Virus record (IMG/VR): IMGVR_UViG_3300035034_001440 | Location: 1-35,415 of that record | DNA: 35,415 nt | Direction: 5' to 3' (one strand) | Source: a virus | Part shown: positions 1,167 to 29,686 of the stretch, in pieces | How positions within the stretch are numbered: position 1 is the stretch's first letter | How the letters are laid out: each line of letters starts with the position of its first letter | Translations under genes and position numbers: made by a program | The notes under the pieces: generated by a model | What the model was told of the DNA's origin: nothing | Seen by the model: only the letters and a program-made list of their open reading frames with translations | Databases searched by the model: none

Positions 1167-1210
1167 TAAATAAAAAACGTACTACAATTTAATGTAATAC
1201 GTTTATTTTA
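1167..1210 (-). terminator. Terminator of the leftward operon
   Basis: Read leftward, the stem AAACGTATTACA / TGTAGTACGTTT has a 6-base loop and one mismatched step, and is followed by a T-rich run. It sits just downstream of the last small leftward ORF, so it fits an intrinsic terminator. The low GC of the stem makes it moderate rather than strong. Confidence 0.65.
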
Positions 1211-2138: not shown

Positions 2139-2215
2139 TGGTGCCACCCCTAGGATTCGAACCCAGAACCTATCATTTACAAGACGATTGCTCTGCCCAT
2201 TTGAGCTAGAGTGGC
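2139..2215 (-). tRNA. tRNA-Thr (anticodon TGT)
   Basis: A full cloverleaf folds: acceptor GCCACTC/GGGTGGC with one G-T pair, D stem GCTC/GAGC, anticodon stem ATCGT/ATGAT with loop CTTGTAA, T stem CTGGG/CCTAG with loop TTCGAAT, discriminator A and an encoded CCA end. Anticodon TGT reads ACA codons, which are frequent in the AT-rich structural genes. It is transcribed with the leftward genes, just downstream of a hairpin at 2221-2242. Confidence 0.93.
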
Positions 2216-6922: not shown

Positions 6923-8668
6923 ATGATTAAAAACGAGAAAAGAATGAGACAGTGGGTTCATTTTTATCGTAAAAACCCACATAGGTTTGTCAAAGATTAT
7001 TTTGGTGTTAAACTTAAATTCTTTCAAAAAATAATTTTTGTATTAATGCATAAATATCCAAACTTTGCGTTTCTAGCGTGTCGTGGTATATCTAAAACAT
7101 TTACGGTTGGTTTATATGCTATTACAATAGCAACACTATATCCCGGTAGTAAAATAGTTATGACAAGTGGTACAAAGGGACAGGCAAAGAAAATAATAAC
7201 AGAAAAAATTAGAGATGAGTTTAGCAATAACTTTCCAAATATCGCTAATGAAATAAAGCAGATTAAAGAGGGTGACGAACCAAGGGTTATGTTTCATAAT
7301 GGCTCGTCAATTATAGCAATAGCCCCAAATGAGAATGCAAGAAGTTTAAGAGCAACAATGCTTATATATGATGAATCAGTAATGATAAAAAAAGAAGTAA
7401 TAGACAAGGTTTTTGAACCAATGAAAGTTTCTGCTTCAAGAATGGTTGATATGCAGAGTAAAGCGTTAAATGGTGATTATGTTGAAGACTTACCATTAAA
7501 AACTATATATATGACTTCTGGAAAATTAAAGTCAAACTGGAATTGGGCAAGATTTTTAAAAATGTATAAAGAAATGATTAATGGTTTTAAAAACAACGAG
7601 GTTACAACCTCCGCAGTTATGTCATTACCATATCATATAGCATTAATGTACAGATTAACTACCTTTGACCAAATAAAAAAAGCGAAAAGAGATAGTGACC
7701 CCGTTGATTTCTTAATGGAATATGAGGGTGAATTTTTTGGTGAAAGTGGTGATGCATTTTTCAAAATGGCTATGTTTGAAAAGAATAGACTTAACATGAA
7801 ACCATATCAATTAAAATATGAACTTGAAGATAATGTTCATGGTGAAGATGCTTATAAGAAATATTTATTTAACGAAGAAAAGAAAATGCCACTTGTAAAT
7901 GGAGAGGTTAGGTTAATGTCTGTTGATACAGCACCATCTTTAGGTGATGGCTCAGATAATAATATTATAACATTGGCCAGATTAATTCCGAAAGTTGGGT
8001 TTTATGAAAAAAGAATTGTTAATATAAAAAAAATGAATAATGACGTAAGTTCTAATTTAGCACTATATATTAAAAGGTGGTTTTATGGGTTTCAAACAAC
8101 ACAATGTGCATTAGATGTTCAAGGGACATCAATGGCCGTGTTCGAAGAACTCGTTAAGCCAATATATGATGCAGAGTTAAATTTTGAGTATCCAGCATGG
8201 AGAGTAATAGAAGGAAATGCTACTGAAAGTAAACTAATGGAACATGCATCAAGAACTAGGGATTTAAACCCCGATGATGTATTATATGCGGTTAATGCCG
8301 ATGCTCCATTTAATCATATGATTGCAACACAATTTCGTTCTGCATTAAAAGAGGGAGATAGAGTAAGATTCTTATTAGATAGAGAAAACGGTAGGGATGC
8401 ACTTGTCGATATGTATAAAACACTAGACCCAATGCAAGAGGCTGAGTTATTAGAGCCTTATATTGGTACAGATGCAACAATAACAGAGGCCGTATTACTT
8501 GAGGGTGAAAGAACAGAAAGAGGGCTTATTAAATTAAAAACATCAAGTGCATCTTCTAAAAAAGATAGATACGTTGCACTAGCATATTTACATCATTTGG
8601 CAACACTTTATGATAAAGATATGGAAAATATAGATTATGATGCGGAGTTTTTTTCTAAATGTAATTAA
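6923..8668 (+). CDS. terL: Terminase large subunit
   Basis: This is the packaging motor. The ATPase domain shows a Walker A-like CRGISKT (residues 53-59), a Walker B MLIYDE ending in D150 and E151, and a coupling motif near TSG 198-200. The C-terminal nuclease domain of RNase H fold shows SVDTA with D335 and ALDVQ with D398, with a likely third acidic site near the C-terminus (KDRYVALAY). At 581 aa it has the usual length. It works with the portal to drive DNA into the procapsid and cut concatemers. The start follows the preceding gene by 2 bases, so coupling is likely. Confidence 0.95.
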   Translation: MIKNEKRMRQWVHFYRKNPHRFVKDYFGVKLKFFQKIIFVLMHKYPNFAFLACRGISKTFTVGLYAITIATLYPGSKIVMTSGTKGQAKKIITEKIRDEFSNNFPNIANEIKQIKEGDEPRVMFHNGSSIIAIAPNENARSLRATMLIYDESVMIKKEVIDKVFEPMKVSASRMVDMQSKALNGDYVEDLPLKTIYMTSGKLKSNWNWARFLKMYKEMINGFKNNEVTTSAVMSLPYHIALMYRLTTFDQIKKAKRDSDPVDFLMEYEGEFFGESGDAFFKMAMFEKNRLNMKPYQLKYELEDNVHGEDAYKKYLFNEEKKMPLVNGEVRLMSVDTAPSLGDGSDNNIITLARLIPKVGFYEKRIVNIKKMNNDVSSNLALYIKRWFYGFQTTQCALDVQGTSMAVFEELVKPIYDAELNFEYPAWRVIEGNATESKLMEHASRTRDLNPDDVLYAVNADAPFNHMIATQFRSALKEGDRVRFLLDRENGRDALVDMYKTLDPMQEAELLEPYIGTDATITEAVLLEGERTERGLIKLKTSSASSKKDRYVALAYLHHLATLYDKDMENIDYDAEFFSKCN

Positions 8669-12366: not shown

Positions 12367-13467
12367 ATGGCTAATAAAATGGAATTAAATAACTTTAGAC
12401 AAACAAGAATAAATACTAGTAAACCAATTGGGACAAAAACTTTAGAATCTGTTAAGTATTTCTTAAATGGTAGAACTGGTGAAATTGCACAAAAAGGTGA
12501 AGAAAATATTAAACATGCGGCTGAACTTTTAGTTAACAATGCTAAAGGAACTCCTGAGCATACAAAAGGGTTAATGCTTGTTAATGAAGCATTTGAAGTT
12601 ACAATCCCTTCAAAAGTTACAAAAGATTTAACTAGTGTATTAAGCGTTTTTGCAGAAGTTCATAACTTAAAACTTAATGACTCAGCAAAAGTTTCTATGT
12701 GGGAAAGTGAACGTCAAGGCGGAATTACTAAAGTTGCAAAAGGTACTCCTGCACCTAAACGTAAAAAAACAAAACGTAGTGTTCCTGTAGCAAAAGAAAG
12801 TTATACAGGTATGGGTTCAATGGATTATAGAGATTTACTTGATGACCCATCTGGTGAATATGGAAGTTTAATCGGTGAAGTTACTATTGATGTAAGAAAC
12901 TCATTAGTTCAAATGGCCGAAGAATCTTTATATACTGGATTAGAAACAGCGGCATCAAACGCCAAAATTGGTGCTTTATATTATGAAGCAGCAGGAATCT
13001 TACAAACATCTATTGATACTTGTATTGGTGAAGTTCGTACTGGCGGTAGAAGTGTTTCAATGTTTGGTGATTATAGAGTAGTTTCTCAAATTACACCATG
13101 GGTTGGTAACGGTGTAAGTGCAGCAGATGAAGTATTGAAACAAATTGATGATTTAGGTTATGTTACAAATTATAACGGTGCAAAAGTTATGGCTGTTGAT
13201 AATTTCTATGATTATAGTAAATCAGAAGCGATTGGTGCAATGAAAGTTTGGGCTAAACAATTGTCTAAAGCAAATGTTTATGTTAAAGGTAGTGGAGAAA
13301 TGGTAGACCCTAACCACGTATTCTTATATGGTGGAGTTACTACTATGACTGGTGAAGATGTAGAGTCTGGTGAGTATGCATTCCGTGTTGACCAAATGGC
13401 CGCTTCATACTTTGTACCTGAAAGAGCAAGTCATGTTGCAATTGTAAGCGATACTGATTTCCAATAA
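12367..13467 (+). CDS. Major capsid protein
   Basis: A 366-aa protein in the canonical place after the scaffold and decoration genes, with a strong GGGGG-type site 7-8 bases before the ATG. It has a charged N-terminal region, a basic segment (about 125-141), and a C-terminal half with the alternating helices and strands expected of HK97-fold capsids. The gene is followed by a strong hairpin (13479-13514), as is the major tail gene, in line with high expression. I assign the family by position, length and composition rather than by a diagnostic motif. Confidence 0.85.
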   Translation: MANKMELNNFRQTRINTSKPIGTKTLESVKYFLNGRTGEIAQKGEENIKHAAELLVNNAKGTPEHTKGLMLVNEAFEVTIPSKVTKDLTSVLSVFAEVHNLKLNDSAKVSMWESERQGGITKVAKGTPAPKRKKTKRSVPVAKESYTGMGSMDYRDLLDDPSGEYGSLIGEVTIDVRNSLVQMAEESLYTGLETAASNAKIGALYYEAAGILQTSIDTCIGEVRTGGRSVSMFGDYRVVSQITPWVGNGVSAADEVLKQIDDLGYVTNYNGAKVMAVDNFYDYSKSEAIGAMKVWAKQLSKANVYVKGSGEMVDPNHVFLYGGVTTMTGEDVESGEYAFRVDQMAASYFVPERASHVAIVSDTDFQ

Positions 13468-13478
13468 GATATAAAAAA

Positions 13479-13514
13479 TTTTGGTGCTAACATTTAATTG
13501 TGTTGGCACCAAAA
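13479..13514. terminator. Hairpin after the major capsid gene
   Basis: TTTTGGTGCTAACA (13479-13492) pairs with TGTTGGCACCAAAA (13501-13514), 14 steps with one T-G pair and an 8-base loop. No T-run follows on the plus strand, so it is probably a partial terminator or an mRNA-stabilising end, separating abundant capsid mRNA from the connector genes. Confidence 0.55.
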
Positions 13515-16778: not shown

Positions 16779-17591
16779 ATGGGAAGACCAAAAAATGGAT
16801 TTAGTGGTAGATTTGCTATTCGTAATGTTGAAAATGTTAAGTTATTGGATACAGTTAGTTTAGAATTATTTGCCGAATCTGTAAATCCTAAAACAGCCCC
16901 AATTACACAGACAGTAGATATGAATTATGCTACTGGTGGTTCTGGTAATTCAAGAGGTGCTGTATTTAAATCAAATAAAAATCTTGAGGTTACATTACAA
17001 GATGCTTATTTCGATATTGCTTTAACTGGTGAACAAATGGGTGAACATGACCTTATTGTTTCTAATGTTACATATGATAAAGTGTATACAACAACTGTTG
17101 CAGATTCATTAGAACTAGATAAAGCACTTGCTACTAATGGAGCAATTACTGTTATGGAAGTTCTTACAGAAGCATGCAAAACAGAATCAAGACGATTCAC
17201 AAAGGTTACGGAGACACCTGATGCAGATGAATACTCTATTACTGGTGATAATATTACATTCAGTACATCTGATGTTGCAGTAGGCTCTATTATTAGAGTA
17301 ATTCAAGATATTACAACTACAAATGCAGTAGACAAATTTACTTCTAATGCAGATGATTTTGCTGGAACTTATACTGCAAAAATTCTTGCAGTAGTTGAAG
17401 ATGTAATAAACAGTAAATCATATTTTGCAGAAATCACTATTCCTAGAGCAAATTTAAGCGATGCTTTGTCACTTAGTTTACAAAATGATGGCGAAGTTGC
17501 TGTTCATGATGCTACGTTAAGCGCATTAGTTAATACTTGTACAAAAGAATTGTGGAGCATGGTTATATATAACGATTCAGATTTACAATAA
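16779..17591 (+). CDS. Major tail (tube) protein
   Basis: A 270-aa beta-rich protein with GGAGG 7 bases before its ATG, followed directly by a terminator, which fits a highly expressed structural gene. Stretches of alternating hydrophobic and small residues such as SRGAVFKSNKNLEVTLQDAY suit the tube fold. Hexamers of this protein stack to form the tail tube between terminator and baseplate. The position between connectors and chaperone-like and tape measure genes supports the call. Confidence 0.75.
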   Translation: MGRPKNGFSGRFAIRNVENVKLLDTVSLELFAESVNPKTAPITQTVDMNYATGGSGNSRGAVFKSNKNLEVTLQDAYFDIALTGEQMGEHDLIVSNVTYDKVYTTTVADSLELDKALATNGAITVMEVLTEACKTESRRFTKVTETPDADEYSITGDNITFSTSDVAVGSIIRVIQDITTTNAVDKFTSNADDFAGTYTAKILAVVEDVINSKSYFAEITIPRANLSDALSLSLQNDGEVAVHDATLSALVNTCTKELWSMVIYNDSDLQ

Positions 17592-17599
17592 AAAAGATT

Positions 17600-17633
17600 G
17601 CCTCAATAAAACTATTATTGGGGCTTAATTTTT
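17600..17633 (+). terminator. Terminator after the major tail gene
   Basis: GCCTCAATAA (17600-17609) pairs with TTATTGGGGC (17615-17624), with one T-G pair and a 5-base loop, followed by TTAATTTTT. This is a regular intrinsic terminator. Some readthrough must occur, or another promoter must exist, for the downstream tail genes. Confidence 0.78.
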
Positions 17634-17651: not shown

Positions 17652-18176
17652 ATGAAATTATTTAAAAAAAGTTCCAAACTTAATATGGCTACAATTAGTA
17701 ACGAGGTCGATAAATATTCAGAGTGGAAACCAATCACAATATTGTTTTCAGACGGATATAAAATTTTTAATATCCAGCCATATATAGGTTCATATCAAAT
17801 TGATACAATTATAGAAGAATATGGTAAGTTTTTAGAAAAATATGCTAAACAAATATCTGATGTTGCTGAAGGTAATAAAACATTAGAACTTAAAAACATT
17901 ATGGGATTCTTGTGTTGTTTTTTAATTAGATATAAAACAGATATATTATCAAGTAATAATCGTGAAATAATTAAAGATATGTCTGACGAGTCAATGATGA
18001 CTGCATCTATAAATATTATAAAATTAAATCAATTTGATAAAATAGTAGGTTCATTCGACAAACAATCTATGAAGGTATTATTCGAAAAGTTTAACGAAAT
18101 ATTGGCAATTGCACCTGACTTTGCAAAAACATTAAACGTTGTTAAAAATATTGATAAAAGTAAAGCGGTATCATAA
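17652..18176 (+). CDS. Probable tail assembly chaperone
   Basis: A 174-aa mainly helical protein between the major tail and tape measure genes, the usual site of the chaperone that coats the tape measure. A GAGGGGTGTTGAT site precedes the ATG. The next ORF lies in the same frame directly after the TAA stop, so stop readthrough would give a 324-aa extended form. The familiar chaperone arrangement uses a -1 frameshift instead, and I see no clear slippery heptamer near the end. Function by position. Confidence 0.5.
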   Translation: MKLFKKSSKLNMATISNEVDKYSEWKPITILFSDGYKIFNIQPYIGSYQIDTIIEEYGKFLEKYAKQISDVAEGNKTLELKNIMGFLCCFLIRYKTDILSSNNREIIKDMSDESMMTASINIIKLNQFDKIVGSFDKQSMKVLFEKFNEILAIAPDFAKTLNVVKNIDKSKAVS

Positions 18177-18626
18177 TTGAATGAAGTATCAGTTGCTTCT
18201 CAATTAAAAAAAGAATTAGAATTATATATAATCGGAGCAATGTCAGATGTTGGTGAAGCAGTTAAAGATGAACACCAAGATGCCATAGAGAGAGTTGTTT
18301 ATAACAAATATGCACCAAGGTATTACAAACGTAGAATGGAACTTAGTGGTTTAAAGGATAGGGGTAATATGCCAATAACTAGATATGGTAAACTTGGTAT
18401 ACAGATGAGAAATATAACAAGAGCAAATCCAAGGTACGGTGGCGACGGTAGATTTATGATTGCGGATAGTATAGAATATGGTACTGGCGTTATGGCTCAG
18501 ATTGGTTCAAGACCATTTTTTGCAGAGACAATTAGGTCTTTAAAGAAAAATGGGACTCATTTATATGCTTTAAAAAAAGGATTAGAAAAGCAGGGAGTAA
18601 AGGTTCTAAGTATAAGAAAAAGATAG
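18177..18626 (+). CDS. HK97 gp10-like tail completion protein
   Basis: The 149-aa product has the features of this family: a helical start, then NKYAPRYYKRRMELSGLKDR (about 43-62), and near the end IEYGTGVMAQIGSRPFFAET (about 101-120) with the E-x-GT and RPF signatures, and a basic C-terminus. Such proteins act at the head-tail junction or complete tails. It starts with TTG directly after the previous stop and has no ribosome binding site of its own, so it needs coupled translation or stop readthrough. Unusually, it lies after the probable chaperone rather than with the connectors. Confidence 0.68.
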   Translation: MNEVSVASQLKKELELYIIGAMSDVGEAVKDEHQDAIERVVYNKYAPRYYKRRMELSGLKDRGNMPITRYGKLGIQMRNITRANPRYGGDGRFMIADSIEYGTGVMAQIGSRPFFAETIRSLKKNGTHLYALKKGLEKQGVKVLSIRKR

Positions 18627-18657
18627 TTAAATGAAAGTTTTAAAGGGAGTTGATTTT

Positions 18658-19635
18658 ATGTATAAAAAAAGAGCGACAAAGAGTATTCCTATAACAGATG
18701 AAATGTGGTCAAGTATAAATAAAGAGTACAGATGTTTAGTTGACGAGTTCTTAAGAGAACATAGAAATAAACAGACTGCCAAACAATATACGTCTGCGTT
18801 AAAGCAGTTTGGTTGGTATATTCATTCAGAATTAGATAGTAAACCATATTATAAAATTACCAAAAGAGATGCTAATAATTATATAAATTATTTATTAGAT
18901 AATGGTATGAGTTCTTCTGGAATTGGATTAAAAAAATCTGCTATATCATCATTAAATAGATATATAGAATTATACATAATTGATGAAGATGAGAATTATT
19001 TAAGTTTTAGAAATTTTATGACTGGGCTAAAACCAGTTGACAAAACAATCTCATATGACAGGTCAAACTTCGTTACCATGGAAGAATACGAATCTCTCAT
19101 TAATAAACTTGAGATTAACAATAGATTGTTGGAGGCTTCATGGTTATCACTTGCCTTTTATACGGCATGTAGAAGAAGTGAACTTAAACAATTTAAAACA
19201 GAAATACTTGACTATGAAATTAAAGATGGTAACTTTATTGTAAGTCACGATATAAGAGGTAAGGGTAGAGGTGAAACTGGTAAAATATTTAAGGTATATA
19301 TACCAATAAGTGCCCTTAAACACGCGAGAGAGTATGTTAGAACTCGCGGATTTGATAATGAATATATTTTATCCTATGAAAATAAAAATGGTTTCACGGG
19401 TGCTGTATATGATAGTTGGGCTAATGAATTTTGTGAGAGTTTTGTTAGTAAAGAACTAGGTAGAAAGATTACACCACATATGTTTAGACATGGGTATATA
19501 ACTCATCTTAAGCAAAATGGTGTAGATATTAATTTAATATCAAAATACATAGCACACCATGAAAGTGTTGATACAACTCAACTTTATATTCATGAGGATA
19601 ATTCAGATAAAATAAAGGAAATATTTAAGTTATAA
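18658..19635 (+). CDS. Tyrosine recombinase
   Basis: I place the start at ATG 18658 (MYKKRATKSI, 325 aa) because GGGAG lies about 10 bases upstream; an ATG at 18631 precedes that site. Residues 25-110 form a SAM-like N-terminal DNA-binding domain. The catalytic domain has every key residue: R172 in ACRRSEL, K202 in RGKGRG, H274 and R277 in HMFRHGY, H300 in IAHH and nucleophile Y310 in TTQLYIH. It is therefore probably active in site-specific strand exchange. It lies on the same strand and transcript as the tail genes, between the gp10-like gene and the tape measure, far from any lysogeny gene in view. Its job could be integration, dimer resolution or DNA inversion; the sequence does not say which. 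Confidence 0.93.
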   Translation: MYKKRATKSIPITDEMWSSINKEYRCLVDEFLREHRNKQTAKQYTSALKQFGWYIHSELDSKPYYKITKRDANNYINYLLDNGMSSSGIGLKKSAISSLNRYIELYIIDEDENYLSFRNFMTGLKPVDKTISYDRSNFVTMEEYESLINKLEINNRLLEASWLSLAFYTACRRSELKQFKTEILDYEIKDGNFIVSHDIRGKGRGETGKIFKVYIPISALKHAREYVRTRGFDNEYILSYENKNGFTGAVYDSWANEFCESFVSKELGRKITPHMFRHGYITHLKQNGVDINLISKYIAHHESVDTTQLYIHEDNSDKIKEIFKL

Positions 19636-19651
19636 ACAGGGATGTGATTAG

Positions 19652-22600
19652 ATGGCATCAGGATTAAGAGTACAGATAACGCCAGTCATATCGACTGCCG
19701 CTATAACTGCTGAACTTAAAAAAATTAACACACAGTTTAATGCGAATAAAATAAATATTCCATTATCTCCAATAAACAAAAAGGTAACAAAGTCAATAAC
19801 AGATACTAAGAGTGCATTTGGTGGTCTGGTAAGTGCTATCGGAAAAGTTGCCATATGGACAGTAGCAACAAGTGCAGTGTTTGGTACGATTAGAGCACTT
19901 AAAAATCTTGTTGGTGAATTTATAAATTTAGAAGACCAGTTAATTGCGATTGAAAGGGTAACAAGTGGACTGAGTATGGAAAAGATTTTTGAGAATTCTC
20001 TTGAATCATCTATTACGCTAGCGGTTGGATTAAAAGAGGTTCTTTCTGTTACGGAAGAACTTGGTAGAACATATGCTGATTTAGATGAAAATCAATTACA
20101 GTTGGCTGCTAGTAATGCAATTCTATTAGCAAGTGTAACAGACCTTACATCAGACTCTGCGGTATCTGGTTTAATAGCAATTACACAAGCGTATAATATA
20201 GCGATTGAAGATAGTATATCTGTCGTAGATGCATTAAACGTTGTTAATAATAATTATGCAATTGGTGCAGCAGATTTATCTAAATCATTAGAAAGGTCAG
20301 CAGCAGCAGCATCAGAAGTTGGAATATCGTTTTCAAATTTAATAGGTTACACAACAGCAATTAAAACATCAACCAGAGAGTCTGGTAGTGTTATAGGAAA
20401 CTCATTAAAAACAATTATGATTAGATTACAATCTAACTCTGACGCGCTTAGAGAAGTACAGCAAGCGGGTGTAGATGTTTACGGTGAAAATGGTCAACTT
20501 AGAGATGCAGAAAAAATTATAAGTGAACTTGCTGGTAAATGGGATGGACTATCTAAAAACCAGAAAGTTAATATAGGGGTTGCAGCAGCAGGTAAGAGAC
20601 AATATACAAGATTTGCAGCATTAATGCAAAACTTTGATATAGCAACGGAATCTGCAAGTGCAGCATTAAGCAACCAAGGTAACGCAATGACAGAGAATGA
20701 AAAAAGGTTAGCAACAATTTCTGCTCAAACTCAAATACTTAAAAATAAAACGTTAGACTTAGCACAAAGTTTTGGTGGACAATTAAAACCAGCGATAGTA
20801 GCGATGACAAACTTATTTACAACATTGGTAGGTGGTTTGAAATTTATGATAGATACATTTGGGCTAGGAACTATTGCAGCATTAGGATTTATACTTATAT
20901 TACCAAAACTGATATTATTTGTTAATGGTCTTACACTTAGTTTGGCGGCACTAAAAGCGGTTAAAACAGCAATGGATGCACTGCCATATATGGCAATAAC
21001 GTTAGCGATTGGGTTTGTTGTAACTCAAATTATAAAACTTAATAAAGAAAATAAAGAAAATATTGAAATTCAAAATAAATCAATAGATTCAATAAATAGA
21101 CATAGCGATGCTATTGGAATACTTGTTGATAGATATGAAGAATTATCTAATGCAAATAATCTTACAGTGGATGAAGGAAGTGAATTAGTTGATGTTCAAA
21201 ATGAACTGACTTCGTTAATGCCATCTTTGGTAAGTTCACAGGATGAATTTGGGAATACGCTACTTGTTTCTGTTAATCTGCTAAAAGAAGAACTTGGAAT
21301 ATTAAAGTTAATAGCATCAGAAAAAGCCGCAGAAGACTTGAAAAAATTAGAAAAACAAATTGGTAAAACAACTAATAGCATAGAAGTAATGACAACATGG
21401 GAAGCAGAATATGCACGCGAGAAATATCGACAATCTAAAAAAACAATTTCATCTCTTAAAGAATTAAGAGAATTGCTAGGTAATTCGTTTTATGATGTTT
21501 CTTCGTCTGATGCAACAAAAGCAATGGTTGAATATAATAAGGTATTAAATGAAAATAAGGATATATATGGTGAATACAAAAACGCTTTATTAATAACAAC
21601 ATTTGGAACAAATAAATTAAATGATACAAATAAAACAGCAATAGATACTTTTGATAATTTAATAAACTCAGAAGGTTTATTATTTTCTAATACAGAAGAT
21701 GTTGGCGATGCACTGAAACATCTTGTGGAAAATATTGCTAGTGGTGTACGTCCAGCATACGCCTTAGAGGGTGCACTACTTTCATTAGGAATAACATATA
21801 AGGGATTTGCGGATAGTGCTTCAGAAGTTGGGGTTATAGACTATTTTACAGATGATGAACTTAATAGTATTAAATTGTTTGATACCGTTATGAGGGATAC
21901 ATTCGGTACAACAGAAATAGGGATTAAGGCAATGAGTAAAGCAATAAACATTGTTAAATTATATGGTGATAAAGTAGCGCTTACGGCTGTACAACAAGGC
22001 GAATTAAATAATGCAATAAGTGCCATCGAGGGTTCAGGTTTATTTGATAAATATAACGGTAATATTCTTGAAAATATTAGTCTTGTTGAAAGGGATTCCA
22101 ACGCCATGATGTTGCTTGTTAAAAATCAAGATGAATTTATAGATGCTGTAGTTAATGGTAGTTTAGAGTTATCTGACAATGCTGACAATATGGCTCATTT
22201 ATTAAGCGTGTATATGTCAGCAGAAGATATATTTAAAACGTTAATAGATATACAAGATGAGTATTCAGACAGTGCTGTTGCTAATTTAGGAAAACAGTCA
22301 GAAGAGTTTTCTTCTATGATAGACAATCAAATAGACGAACTTGATAGATTAAGAAACACTATAGAATTTGATGAGACTATTGGTGGTCTAAATAGCGACA
22401 GAATAGAGATAGAAAAAGAGTTATCAAGATTACAAAATGATAATTCAATTGAGGGTATTACAAAGAGGAACGCTCTTGAAGAAAAACTTGCTGAAAATAA
22501 AGAAGACATGGCCTCCGAATTAAGAGATAGAGATTTTGACATTCAAAAGTCAAACCTTGAGGCGTTACAAGAATTAACTGAAAATAACTATGAAACAAAA

Positions 22601-22969
22601 ATAGCAAAAGAAATAATGTTAAATGAAATAATAAAAGAGAGAATAACAGCACAATCTGAGGCATTATCAAATGATGTTACATCTTTAGAGAAATTGGAAA
22701 CAATAATAACAAATATTGGCAATATCGGTTCTATGGGTATAATCCAAGACCTTATTGATTCTGGTGTATTTGATTTAGACGAGTATAAATCTGAAGATAT
22801 TGATAAAATAACTTCACCATTTGTTCCCGCTGGTGACGATGGAAAAATATATATAGATAAAATAATTCTTGAGGGAAAAGCAACAGAAGAGGATGGAAAA
22901 AACATTTTAGAAGGGATAATGAATTATGCATATGGTAAAAATCTTGTTACAATAGTTAAAAATAGATAA
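19652..22969 (+). CDS. Tail tape measure protein
   Basis: At 1105 aa this long protein lies before the distal tail gene and sets tail length; by the usual rule of about 1.5 angstrom per residue it predicts a tail of roughly 165 nm. The N-terminal part resembles the TP901 tape measure core (KAFGGLVSAIGK-like start, then EDQLIAIERVTSG and TRESGSVIGNSLKTIMIRLQ, about 230-260). Hydrophobic segments lie at about 405-435 and 445-465, as expected for a protein that interacts with the host membrane. The C-terminal third (about 880-1020) is predicted coiled coil. GGGATGTGATTAG precedes the ATG. Confidence 0.93.
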   Translation: MASGLRVQITPVISTAAITAELKKINTQFNANKINIPLSPINKKVTKSITDTKSAFGGLVSAIGKVAIWTVATSAVFGTIRALKNLVGEFINLEDQLIAIERVTSGLSMEKIFENSLESSITLAVGLKEVLSVTEELGRTYADLDENQLQLAASNAILLASVTDLTSDSAVSGLIAITQAYNIAIEDSISVVDALNVVNNNYAIGAADLSKSLERSAAAASEVGISFSNLIGYTTAIKTSTRESGSVIGNSLKTIMIRLQSNSDALREVQQAGVDVYGENGQLRDAEKIISELAGKWDGLSKNQKVNIGVAAAGKRQYTRFAALMQNFDIATESASAALSNQGNAMTENEKRLATISAQTQILKNKTLDLAQSFGGQLKPAIVAMTNLFTTLVGGLKFMIDTFGLGTIAALGFILILPKLILFVNGLTLSLAALKAVKTAMDALPYMAITLAIGFVVTQIIKLNKENKENIEIQNKSIDSINRHSDAIGILVDRYEELSNANNLTVDEGSELVDVQNELTSLMPSLVSSQDEFGNTLLVSVNLLKEELGILKLIASEKAAEDLKKLEKQIGKTTNSIEVMTTWEAEYAREKYRQSKKTISSLKELRELLGNSFYDVSSSDATKAMVEYNKVLNENKDIYGEYKNALLITTFGTNKLNDTNKTAIDTFDNLINSEGLLFSNTEDVGDALKHLVENIASGVRPAYALEGALLSLGITYKGFADSASEVGVIDYFTDDELNSIKLFDTVMRDTFGTTEIGIKAMSKAINIVKLYGDKVALTAVQQGELNNAISAIEGSGLFDKYNGNILENISLVERDSNAMMLLVKNQDEFIDAVVNGSLELSDNADNMAHLLSVYMSAEDIFKTLIDIQDEYSDSAVANLGKQSEEFSSMIDNQIDELDRLRNTIEFDETIGGLNSDRIEIEKELSRLQNDNSIEGITKRNALEEKLAENKEDMASELRDRDFDIQKSNLEALQELTENNYETKIAKEIMLNEIIKERITAQSEALSNDVTSLEKLETIITNIGNIGSMGIIQDLIDSGVFDLDEYKSEDIDKITSPFVPAGDDGKIYIDKIILEGKATEEDGKNILEGIMNYAYGKNLVTIVKNR

Positions 22970-28475: not shown

Positions 28476-29039
28476 ATGGCTAAAGAAAAGTGGATAGATG
28501 TAATCAAATTTGAAGGAATTTACCAAATAAGTAGTTTTGGTAGAGTTAGGAGTTTACCCAGAATCACCGCTCATAGTAGAAAAATATCTGGCAGAATATT
28601 AAAGCCAAGACCAACAAAAACTGGTTATTTAAGAGTCCAACTACATGACAATGGTATAGCAAAAGATTTTTATATACATAGACTAGTTGCAATATACTTT
28701 GTTGATAACACAAACAATTATAACGAAGTAAACCATATCGATGGTATTAAATCAAATAATTTTGATTTAAATTTGGAGTGGTGTGATAGGAGTATGAATA
28801 TGGTTCATTCTTATAACAAATTAAATAATAAAAAAGGGTGTTTCCCAATAAAAAGTGTTTTGGGTATAAACCTAGAAAGTGGTAAAAAATTATATTTTAT
28901 TTCAATATCAAACGCTGAAAAATGGTTAAGAAATAATGGGTATCCAAAAGCACTTCACGGTAACATATGTTCTGTGTGTAATAGTAAATGTAAATATGCT
29001 TATGGACATACATGGGAGTACACGGAGGTAATAAAATAA
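28476..29039 (+). CDS. HNH homing-type endonuclease
   Basis: The 187-aa protein has the full layout of phage HNH homing enzymes: a NUMOD4 motif at residues 6-26 (WIDVIKFEGIYQISSFGRVRS, partly), the HNH core from H68 in HRLVAIYF through VNHIDGIKSNN (85-95) to NLEWC (99-103), and a NUMOD1-like C-terminal DNA-binding segment (about 124-150). It nicks or cuts DNA at specific sites and helps its own gene spread. It has AAAGGAG before the ATG. It lies between tail genes without any visible intron, as a free-standing insertion. Its end overlaps the next gene by one base. Confidence 0.92.
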   Translation: MAKEKWIDVIKFEGIYQISSFGRVRSLPRITAHSRKISGRILKPRPTKTGYLRVQLHDNGIAKDFYIHRLVAIYFVDNTNNYNEVNHIDGIKSNNFDLNLEWCDRSMNMVHSYNKLNNKKGCFPIKSVLGINLESGKKLYFISISNAEKWLRNNGYPKALHGNICSVCNSKCKYAYGHTWEYTEVIK

Positions 29040-29686
29040 TGGCTAAGAAAAAGAAAGTTAAGAAAAGATTAATTAAGGATTTAAGAAACAAAGATTATAT
29101 AATTTCAATCGACCTTGCATTGGCAAAATCTGGTTGGTCAGTATATGATTTAAAAACAAAGAAGATTATAGACTATGGTATATTCGTAACCAAGCCTAAT
29201 AAATTGATGGGGGAAAGACTTCGTACAATACATGGTGAGATTAGAAAGATACAGAAAATGTATCCTAATTATCACATAATAAAAGAGACTATGCCTTTAC
29301 AAAATGCTTTTACGACAATTAAGACGCTTCAAGGATTGGCAATGAGTCACGCGATTGCTCTGCTACTTTCACCGTTGGCTGACGATGTACACCCCTTAAG
29401 CATAAAAAGTGTTGTGAGGAAGTATATGGGTGCTGACAGCAAAACTAAGACATCTAAAGACGAAGTGAGATATGCTATGAATGAAATTTATGGACTTGAT
29501 ATTAAAGATAATGATATATCAGATTCTATTGGTGTGTTATATACTTTTAAAATTAAGTTTGATAAAGAGATTGATGAAGATATTAAACAAATAAGAAAAA
29601 AAATCAAGACGCTATCTACACAGACTGCTATTGATAAAAATATAAAATTAATTAAAGATTTAGAAAATAGAAAAATAAATATTTAG
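29039..29686 (+). CDS. RuvC-like Holliday junction resolvase
   Basis: I start at ATG 29039 (MAKKKKVKKR, 215 aa), which has GGAGG about 12 bases upstream, within the end of the HNH gene. The RNase H-fold motifs of RuvC are visible: D25 in ISIDLALAKSGW, E83 in IIKETMP, and NDISDSIGV with D159 and D162. The basic N-terminus and helical C-terminal extension are additions. Such resolvases clear branched DNA before packaging. Phage versions usually lie with replication or packaging genes, so a place between hub and fibres is unusual and may reflect arrival with the HNH gene. Confidence 0.85.
   Translation: MAKKKKVKKRLIKDLRNKDYIISIDLALAKSGWSVYDLKTKKIIDYGIFVTKPNKLMGERLRTIHGEIRKIQKMYPNYHIIKETMPLQNAFTTIKTLQGLAMSHAIALLLSPLADDVHPLSIKSVVRKYMGADSKTKTSKDEVRYAMNEIYGLDIKDNDISDSIGVLYTFKIKFDKEIDEDIKQIRKKIKTLSTQTAIDKNIKLIKDLENRKINI

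What the first reader, a model, noticed from the sequence alone, without database searches (positions are those of the whole stretch)
18658..19635. Active-looking tyrosine recombinase inside the tail operon
A tyrosine recombinase with all catalytic residues sits on the same strand between the gp10-like gene and the tape measure gene. Phage integrases normally lie with attP and lysogeny genes. No terminator or own promoter separates it from the tail genes, so it would be made late. It could resolve genome multimers before packaging, invert host-range DNA, or integrate. It may also be a recent insertion.
Basis: partly seen in the sequence, partly recalled or inferred. Interest (0 to 1): 0.65.

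Follow-up and report, generated by a model that had tools for sequence, protein, structure and literature searches.

The report
Late-operon YomM-type phage recombinase
This phage carries an intact DNA recombinase wedged among its tail genes, and the same gene sits at the same spot in a wide family of large phages of Gram-positive bacteria, including strictly killing ones, so it most likely processes the phage's own DNA late in infection instead of inserting it into the host chromosome.

Summary
Window 18658-19635 (+) encodes a complete tyrosine recombinase between a gp10-like gene and the tape measure gene. It is not a recent insertion. It belongs to the YomM lineage of Bacillus phage SPbeta (42-47% identity). 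That lineage occupies the same slot in SPbeta-like phages, in the lytic Lactococcus 949 group, in large Bacillus siphophages and in many metagenomic contigs. In a tree, late-operon recombinases (tape-measure slot plus an after-endolysin slot) separate from host XerC/XerD, YopP-type recombinases and the phage integrases sampled (97/97). SPbeta integrates with the serine recombinase SprA, and SPbeta late genes form one late operon, so integration is not the likely job. The fold is Xer/Cre-like with no arm-binding domain. New functional lead: 18 of 123 distinct relatives carry a RusA- or RuvC-type Holliday junction resolvase on the same strand, 10 of them immediately upstream; the two unrelated folds swap at least three times in one subclade. 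The window phage has its own RuvC-like gene in the same operon. I infer a late, non-integrative recombinase that resolves multimers or junctions during genome maturation. The DNA target site and activity are not shown. Ordinary in identity; interesting as an unexplained, conserved late module.

The parts
18658..19635 (+). YomM-type tyrosine recombinase CDS (alternative upstream ATG 18631)
   Evidence: PF00589 62.7 bits, phrog_1 1.9e-37; 42-47% to SPbeta YomM and Staphylococcus SPbeta-like homologues
19171..19182 (+). Catalytic Arg I (R181/R182) and E184
   Evidence: invariant or nearly so in 75 distinct relatives
19261..19284 (+). beta2-beta3 hairpin with catalytic Lys (K211 or K218)
   Evidence: K218 in 74/75, K211 in 70/75
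19477..19488 (+). His-x-x-Arg box, H283..R286 (Arg II)
   Evidence: H 74/74; R in 23, K in 51 relatives; R in the window
19555..19587 (+). H309/H310 and nucleophile Y319
   Evidence: H310 73/73 and Y319 73/73 where aligned
18177..18626 (+). gp10-like / head-tail-joining-type gene directly upstream, homologue of SPBc2p037 and its Staphylococcus counterpart
   Evidence: BLASTP 5e-06 and 3e-11 to the genes at the same position
17652..18176 (+). small gene in tail-assembly-chaperone position
   Evidence: phrog_7383 5e-07; weak similarity to YomO
16779..17591 (+). tail tube-type virion protein
   Evidence: phrog_2729 3.9e-23; 9e-10 to the Staphylococcus SPbeta-like counterpart
19652..22969 (+). tape measure protein directly downstream (16-bp gap)
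   Evidence: phrog_4211 1.6e-116; 6e-22 to Staphylococcus SPbeta-like TMP
29012..29686 (+). RuvC-like Holliday junction resolvase in the same late operon (possible partner activity)
   Evidence: phrog_159 1.8e-14; below Pfam threshold
6923..8668 (+). large terminase, closest to SPbeta YonF, anchoring the phage near SPbeta-like phages
   Evidence: 34.5% over 93%
17600..17624 (+). terminator-like hairpin between tail tube gene and the chaperone-position gene
   Evidence: 10 pairs, loop 5, T-rich tail

Best explanation
The gene is an intact member of the YomM lineage of phage tyrosine recombinases, a long-standing resident of the slot between the gp10-like gene and the tape measure gene in large Firmicutes siphophages. 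Shown by sequence: identity, completeness, catalytic residues, conserved position, and separation from the sampled integrases in the tree. Inferred: it is transcribed late with the tail genes, binds a simple short site like Xer or Cre (two domains, no arm-binding domain), and acts on the phage's own replicated DNA. Most likely step: resolving multimers or recombination junctions made by recombination-dependent replication so that packageable DNA is obtained, next to a Holliday junction resolvase. It is most likely not the integrase of this phage.
For: Same slot in SPbeta, Staphylococcus, Mammaliicoccus, Lactococcus 949, FADO and BcoS-136 and in most of 123 distinct relatives: tape measure found downstream in 80 of 112 testable, a lower bound. 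Tree: tape-measure-slot clade 100/99 and all late-operon recombinases 97/97, apart from host XerC/D, YopP-like and sampled integrases. SPbeta integrates with SprA and transcribes late genes as one operon (PMC8270828; PMC5467207). SEP9, Ldl1 and VPE25 have only the late recombinase; 6ec, which carries the SEP9-type gene, is described as virulent although an integrase gene was noted (PMC4125762). Fold: XerA, XerH, Cre and Tn1549 Int best matches; no arm-binding domain in Pfam. Purifying selection dN/dS 0.02-0.06. RusA- or RuvC-like gene beside the recombinase in 18 of 123 distinct loci, 10 within 250 bp, 17 of the 18 within about 1.6 kb upstream; all 12 members of one subclade have one, with at least 3 swaps between the two folds. 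PMBT24 has a RuvC-like gene in the slot and no recombinase there.
Against: No target site identified in the window or in relatives. Headful or cos packaging uses concatemers, so a monomerising enzyme before packaging is not obviously needed. Some relatives lack the gene at this slot (TR-TP2, AR1086-1, PMBT24, H1, Slash), so it is dispensable for this virion design. Resolvase linkage is limited to part of the lineage, and the window's RuvC-like gene is 9.4 kb away. In SPbeta-like relatives Arg II is Lys, which could lower catalysis. SA2, with a homologous late recombinase, was reported able to lysogenise (PMC6787349).
Confidence: 0.45

Rival explanations
1. It is the integrase (or a second integrase) of a temperate phage, merely located in the tail operon; it integrates and excises the genome at an unseen attP.
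For: Tsamsa authors proposed that its three tyrosine recombinases widen integration choice (PMC3903500). SA2 was reported to lysogenise with only this type of gene annotated (PMC6787349). The window is a fragment, so a lysogeny module could lie outside it.
Against: SPbeta uses SprA. Late operon position is conserved in phages described as virulent. The tree places it outside the sampled integrases. No arm-binding domain. No recognisable lysogeny gene next to it.
Confidence: 0.17
2. It drives exchange of cargo genes at a site beside its own gene during lytic growth, an integron-like or cassette-like role. In Bacillus SPbeta-like phages a single-copy ~63-bp element after yomM would be its core site.
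For: Inserts of 0, about 272, 398 and 714 bp lie between the yomM stop and the element. Close relatives change sequence at the element's left or right edge. One copy in each of 59 contigs. Arms conserved, 4-6 nt centre hypervariable, as expected of a core site. Cargo lies between recombinase and tape measure in many relatives.
Against: The 3' half forms a hairpin with compensating changes and could be a plain transcription terminator. A short conserved island between variable cargo gives the same breakpoints by homologous recombination. The window has only 16 bp between recombinase and tape measure and no such element.
Confidence: 0.14
3. It is a DNA-binding regulator with a recombinase fold, like the SPbeta repressor MrpR.
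For: MrpR is a precedent for a tyrosine-recombinase fold used as a repressor (PMC10516654). Arg II is Lys in most SPbeta-type relatives.
Against: MrpR has lost most catalytic residues, whereas here Tyr, His, Glu, Arg I and Lys are conserved in nearly all relatives and Arg II is present in the window. Late operon position is odd for a repressor.
Confidence: 0.08
4. It inverts or deletes a phage segment to switch tail fibre or receptor genes.
For: Some tyrosine-type recombinases are invertases (weak NCBIfam match to NF007370). The gene is near tail genes.
Against: No invertible segment or paired sites were seen around the gene; the nearest neighbours are chaperone-position, gp10-like and tape measure genes, not receptor genes. 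This was not searched exhaustively.
Confidence: 0.04
5. A recently inserted selfish or moron gene with no role in the phage cycle.
For: Natural absence at the slot in TR-TP2 and others.
Against: Deep conservation of position, strong purifying selection, and distance correlation with gp10-like and chaperone-position neighbours (Mantel r 0.34 and 0.30, 1 of 2000 permutations each). Base composition 29% G+C fits the neighbours.
Confidence: 0.05

Closest known systems
YomM of Bacillus phage SPbeta (NC_001884, SPBc2p036)
   Same: About 43% identity over 92%, same strand and same upstream neighbours, tape measure downstream
   Different: YomM has Lys for Arg II and has yomL-yomK-yomJ cargo between it and the tape measure; the window has Arg and a 16-bp gap
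ORF131 of lytic Lactococcus phage 949 and the AM/WRP3 group
   Same: 33% identity, directly between a structural gene and the tape measure gene
   Different: Belongs to the other half of the clade; 949 also has a second, YopP-like recombinase
After-endolysin recombinases of SEP9/6ec, Ldl1, VPE25, GR1 and plasmid pBS32
   Same: Late-operon position, sister group in the tree (100/97), 23-27% identity
   Different: Last gene of the lysis cassette instead of the tape measure slot
XerA / XerC / XerD / XerH and Cre
   Same: Two-domain architecture, same catalytic set, best sequence and fold matches
   Different: Far below NCBIfam equivalog cut-offs (66 v 335 bits for XerC, 86 v 220 for XerA); separate clade from host XerC/D; no dif or lox site known
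MrpR of SPbeta
   Same: Tyrosine recombinase fold in an SPbeta-like phage
   Different: MrpR lacks catalytic residues and is a repressor

Membership tests
Tyrosine recombinase superfamily | R-(E/D)-K-H-R-(H/W)-Y catalytic set in a PF00589 domain | tested here: met
   model pLDDT 88.9 with XerA, XerH and Cre among the top fold matches
Tyrosine recombinase superfamily | DNA strand cleavage and exchange | not testable with these tools
   needs biochemistry
YomM lineage (tape-measure-slot recombinases) | Sequence clade with SPbeta YomM | tested here: met
   99/100 with SPbeta-type and 100/99 with the whole tape-measure-slot clade
YomM lineage (tape-measure-slot recombinases) | Slot between gp10-like gene and tape measure, same strand | tested here: met
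Phage integrase of a temperate phage | Adjacent attP and lysogeny genes | tested here: inconclusive
   none recognised next to the gene, but the record is a 35-kb fragment
Phage integrase of a temperate phage | N-terminal arm-binding domain (lambda/Tn916 type) | tested here: not met
   only PF00589 and a sub-threshold Phage_int_SAM_4 match; residues 1-14 low confidence, then the core-binding helices
Host-type XerC/XerD | Equivalog score or clade membership with XerC/XerD | tested here: not met
   66 v 335 and 49 v 330 bits; separate clade
Xer/Cre-like resolvase (works like) | Single dif/lox-like site in the phage genome | tested here: inconclusive
   conserved-noncoding and inverted-repeat scans gave no shared site
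Integron integrase / cassette system | TIGR02249 membership and attC sites with cassettes | tested here: not met
   36 v 265 bits; no such element beside the window gene
MrpR-type regulator | Loss of catalytic residues | tested here: not met
   all catalytic residues present

The most novel reading that the evidence does not exclude
Late-operon tyrosine recombinases are a dedicated phage genome-maturation module, distinct from integrases, working at their own site together with an interchangeable Holliday junction resolvase (RusA or RuvC). In SPbeta-like relatives the site would be the single-copy element beside yomM, where cargo genes are also swapped during lytic growth.
Probability: 0.25. 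Interest if true: 0.72.

Novelty: new variant of a known kind. Interest (0 to 1): 0.47.

Why it matters
'Integrase' genes in lytic phages are often read as signs of a temperate lifestyle, which bears on choosing phages for therapy and on lifestyle prediction. A well-supported late-operon lineage with its own genomic slots gives a way to tell such genes from real integrases, and the linked Holliday junction resolvases point to a testable, unexplained step in the maturation of large phage genomes.

Tried and rejected
Conserved 28-mers across noncoding DNA of SPbeta, E3, two staphylococcal-type phages and G003 gave only A+T-rich and SPBRE-like noise. Inverted repeats with 5-9 bp spacers gave no shared arm motif across 8 genomes and the window; the window repeat at 1175-1204 (AAACGTACTACA-ATTTAA-TGTAATACGTTT) is about what chance gives by my own estimate. 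Single-sequence searches for close relatives of the recombinase, terminase and tape measure in IMG/VR found none. A first tree containing junk peptides from wrongly oriented loci was discarded and rebuilt. No paper in the library mentions yomM in the phage sense. Megablast of the first 25 kb against phages: no match.

Full report
Observation. The ORF at 18658-19635 (+) is real and complete. It scores 62.7 bits against PF00589 (cut-off 27.1) and 1.9e-37 against phrog_1. The start at 18658 has a good Shine-Dalgarno-like sequence; the in-frame ATG at 18631 does not. Residue numbers below count from 18631. The genes around it read, in order, terminase (34.5% to SPbeta YonF), several unassigned head-region genes, tail tube-type protein, chaperone-position gene, gp10-like gene, recombinase, tape measure, Dit, tail protein, HNH, RuvC-like gene, all on the + strand. 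G+C of the gene (0.290) fits its neighbours.

Relatives. tblastn against phages finds 160 records. The best are Staphylococcus, Geobacillus and Bacillus SPbeta-like phages (43-47%), then the Lactococcus 949 group and large Bacillus siphophages FADO, PJN02 and BcoS-136 (31-34%), then a 24-29% group. Annotated maps show that the first two sets hold the gene in the same slot, 5' of the tape measure gene. The last set has it, in the five maps examined, right after the endolysin or lysis genes at the end of the late operon. Profile scans added 80, 7 and 78 loci. Among 123 distinct recombinases a tape measure gene was found downstream on the same strand in 80 of 112 testable loci and a gp10-like or chaperone-position gene upstream in 72 of 120; both are lower bounds from simple searches on truncated loci.

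Tree. With host XerC/XerD, YopP-like recombinases of the same phages and several phage integrases included, the tape-measure-slot recombinases form one side of a branch (22 rows, 100/99), the after-endolysin group joins them (27 rows, 100/97), and the Sundance/LC76P1 slot recombinases join next (29 rows, 97/97). The window lies in the SPbeta-type half (99/100) on a long branch. Rooting and sampling limits apply: only a few integrases were included.

Catalysis. In 75 distinct relatives Arg I, Glu, Lys, His and Tyr are conserved almost without exception. Arg II is Arg in 23, including the window, and Lys in 51, the SPbeta-type ones. The Lys-bearing genes are under strong purifying selection (dN/dS 0.02-0.06), so they are functional, whether or not they are efficient recombinases. 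The predicted fold (mean pLDDT 88.9) matches XerA, XerH, Cre and Tn1549 Int, and no arm-binding domain was found.

Not a recent insertion. Position is conserved across the lineage, and recombinase distances correlate with those of the gp10-like (Mantel r 0.34) and chaperone-position (0.30) neighbours, each reached by 1 of 2000 permutations; the tape measure gives 0.20 (34 of 2000). The gene is still absent from the slot in some relatives: TR-TP2 has gp10-like and tape measure genes 25 bp apart, and AR1086-1, PMBT24, H1 and Slash also lack it.

Late, and not the integrase. SPbeta late genes are one operon transcribed by the phage polymerase YonO (PMC5467207; PMC8270828), and SPbeta integrates with the serine recombinase SprA. 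SEP9, Ldl1 and VPE25 carry only the late recombinase among PF00589 proteins, and 6ec, which has the SEP9-type gene, is described as virulent (PMC4125762). A counter-example is SA2, reported to lysogenise (PMC6787349). That the 949 group is lytic is from my own knowledge.

Junction-processing link. In one branch of the lineage the gene just upstream of the recombinase is a Holliday junction resolvase: RuvC-like (phrog_159; L084, L087) or RusA-like (phrog_1682; L080, L086, L090). Of 123 distinct loci 18 have one on the same strand, 10 within 250 bp (some overlapping the recombinase start) and 17 of 18 within about 1.6 kb upstream. Inside a subclade of 12 all have one, with at least three changes between the two unrelated folds. 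Enterocloster phage PMBT24 has a RuvC-like gene in the same slot and no recombinase there. The window has its RuvC-like gene further down the operon, at 29012-29686. Loci are related by descent, so these counts are not independent; the fold swaps are the stronger point.

Possible site in relatives. In Bacillus SPbeta-like phages a ~63-bp element follows yomM: AAAATCCCTCTTTTATKCARAATCAARATYC, then a hairpin with a hypervariable 4-6 nt centre, then GATTTTGCTTATG. It is present once in each of 59 contigs. Unrelated inserts of about 272, 398 and 714 bp lie between the yomM stop and the element, and close relatives change sequence at its left edge (SPbeta v L067, L039) or right edge (SPbeta v L060; L039 v L040). 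It may be a recombination core site or a terminator; nothing here separates the two. The window lacks it.

Mechanism. Shown: identity, completeness, conserved slot, clade, selection in relatives. Inferred: late expression in this phage, a simple Xer/Cre-like site, and action on replicated phage DNA. My preferred reading is resolution of multimers or junctions during genome maturation (0.45). The weak points are the missing target site and the fact that concatemers are normal packaging substrates. The identity claim (YomM-lineage, catalytically complete, non-recent) I hold at about 0.95.

Noticed in passing
L080:5301-5768, L084:5516-5971, L086:5539-5982, L087:5366-5827, L090:5544-6011 and 13 more loci: RusA-like or RuvC-like Holliday junction resolvase genes directly or closely upstream of the recombinase, with the two folds swapping within one subclade
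   Followed up: yes
L002:10378-10440 and 58 other contigs: Single-copy ~63-bp element with conserved arms and a hypervariable 4-6 nt centre after yomM, bounding cargo inserts; recombination site or terminator
   Followed up: partly
L004:8000-8060, L012:8003-8060, L015:7009-7062: Another ~52-bp structured inverted-repeat element after the recombinase in staphylococcal-type relatives, with paired changes between phages
   Followed up: no
window 2139-2215 (-): tRNA-Thr (TGT) gene near the left end
   Followed up: no
window 28476-29039: NUMOD4/HNH homing-type endonuclease gene overlapping the start of the RuvC-like gene
   Followed up: no
window 13479-13514: Strong 14-bp hairpin (TTTTGGTGCTAACA..TGTTGGCACCAAAA) just after the ORF at 12367-13467, terminator-like
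   Followed up: no
window 1175-1204: 12-6-12 inverted repeat with core-site geometry in noncoding DNA, flanked by A and T runs; not beyond chance
   Followed up: partly
L163:19853-20789: Clostridioides phage AR1086-1 has a 937-bp unannotated gap at the recombinase slot with no readable recombinase
   Followed up: partly
HM029250.1 (949) 538-1014: Phage 949 carries a second, YopP-like tyrosine recombinase
   Followed up: no
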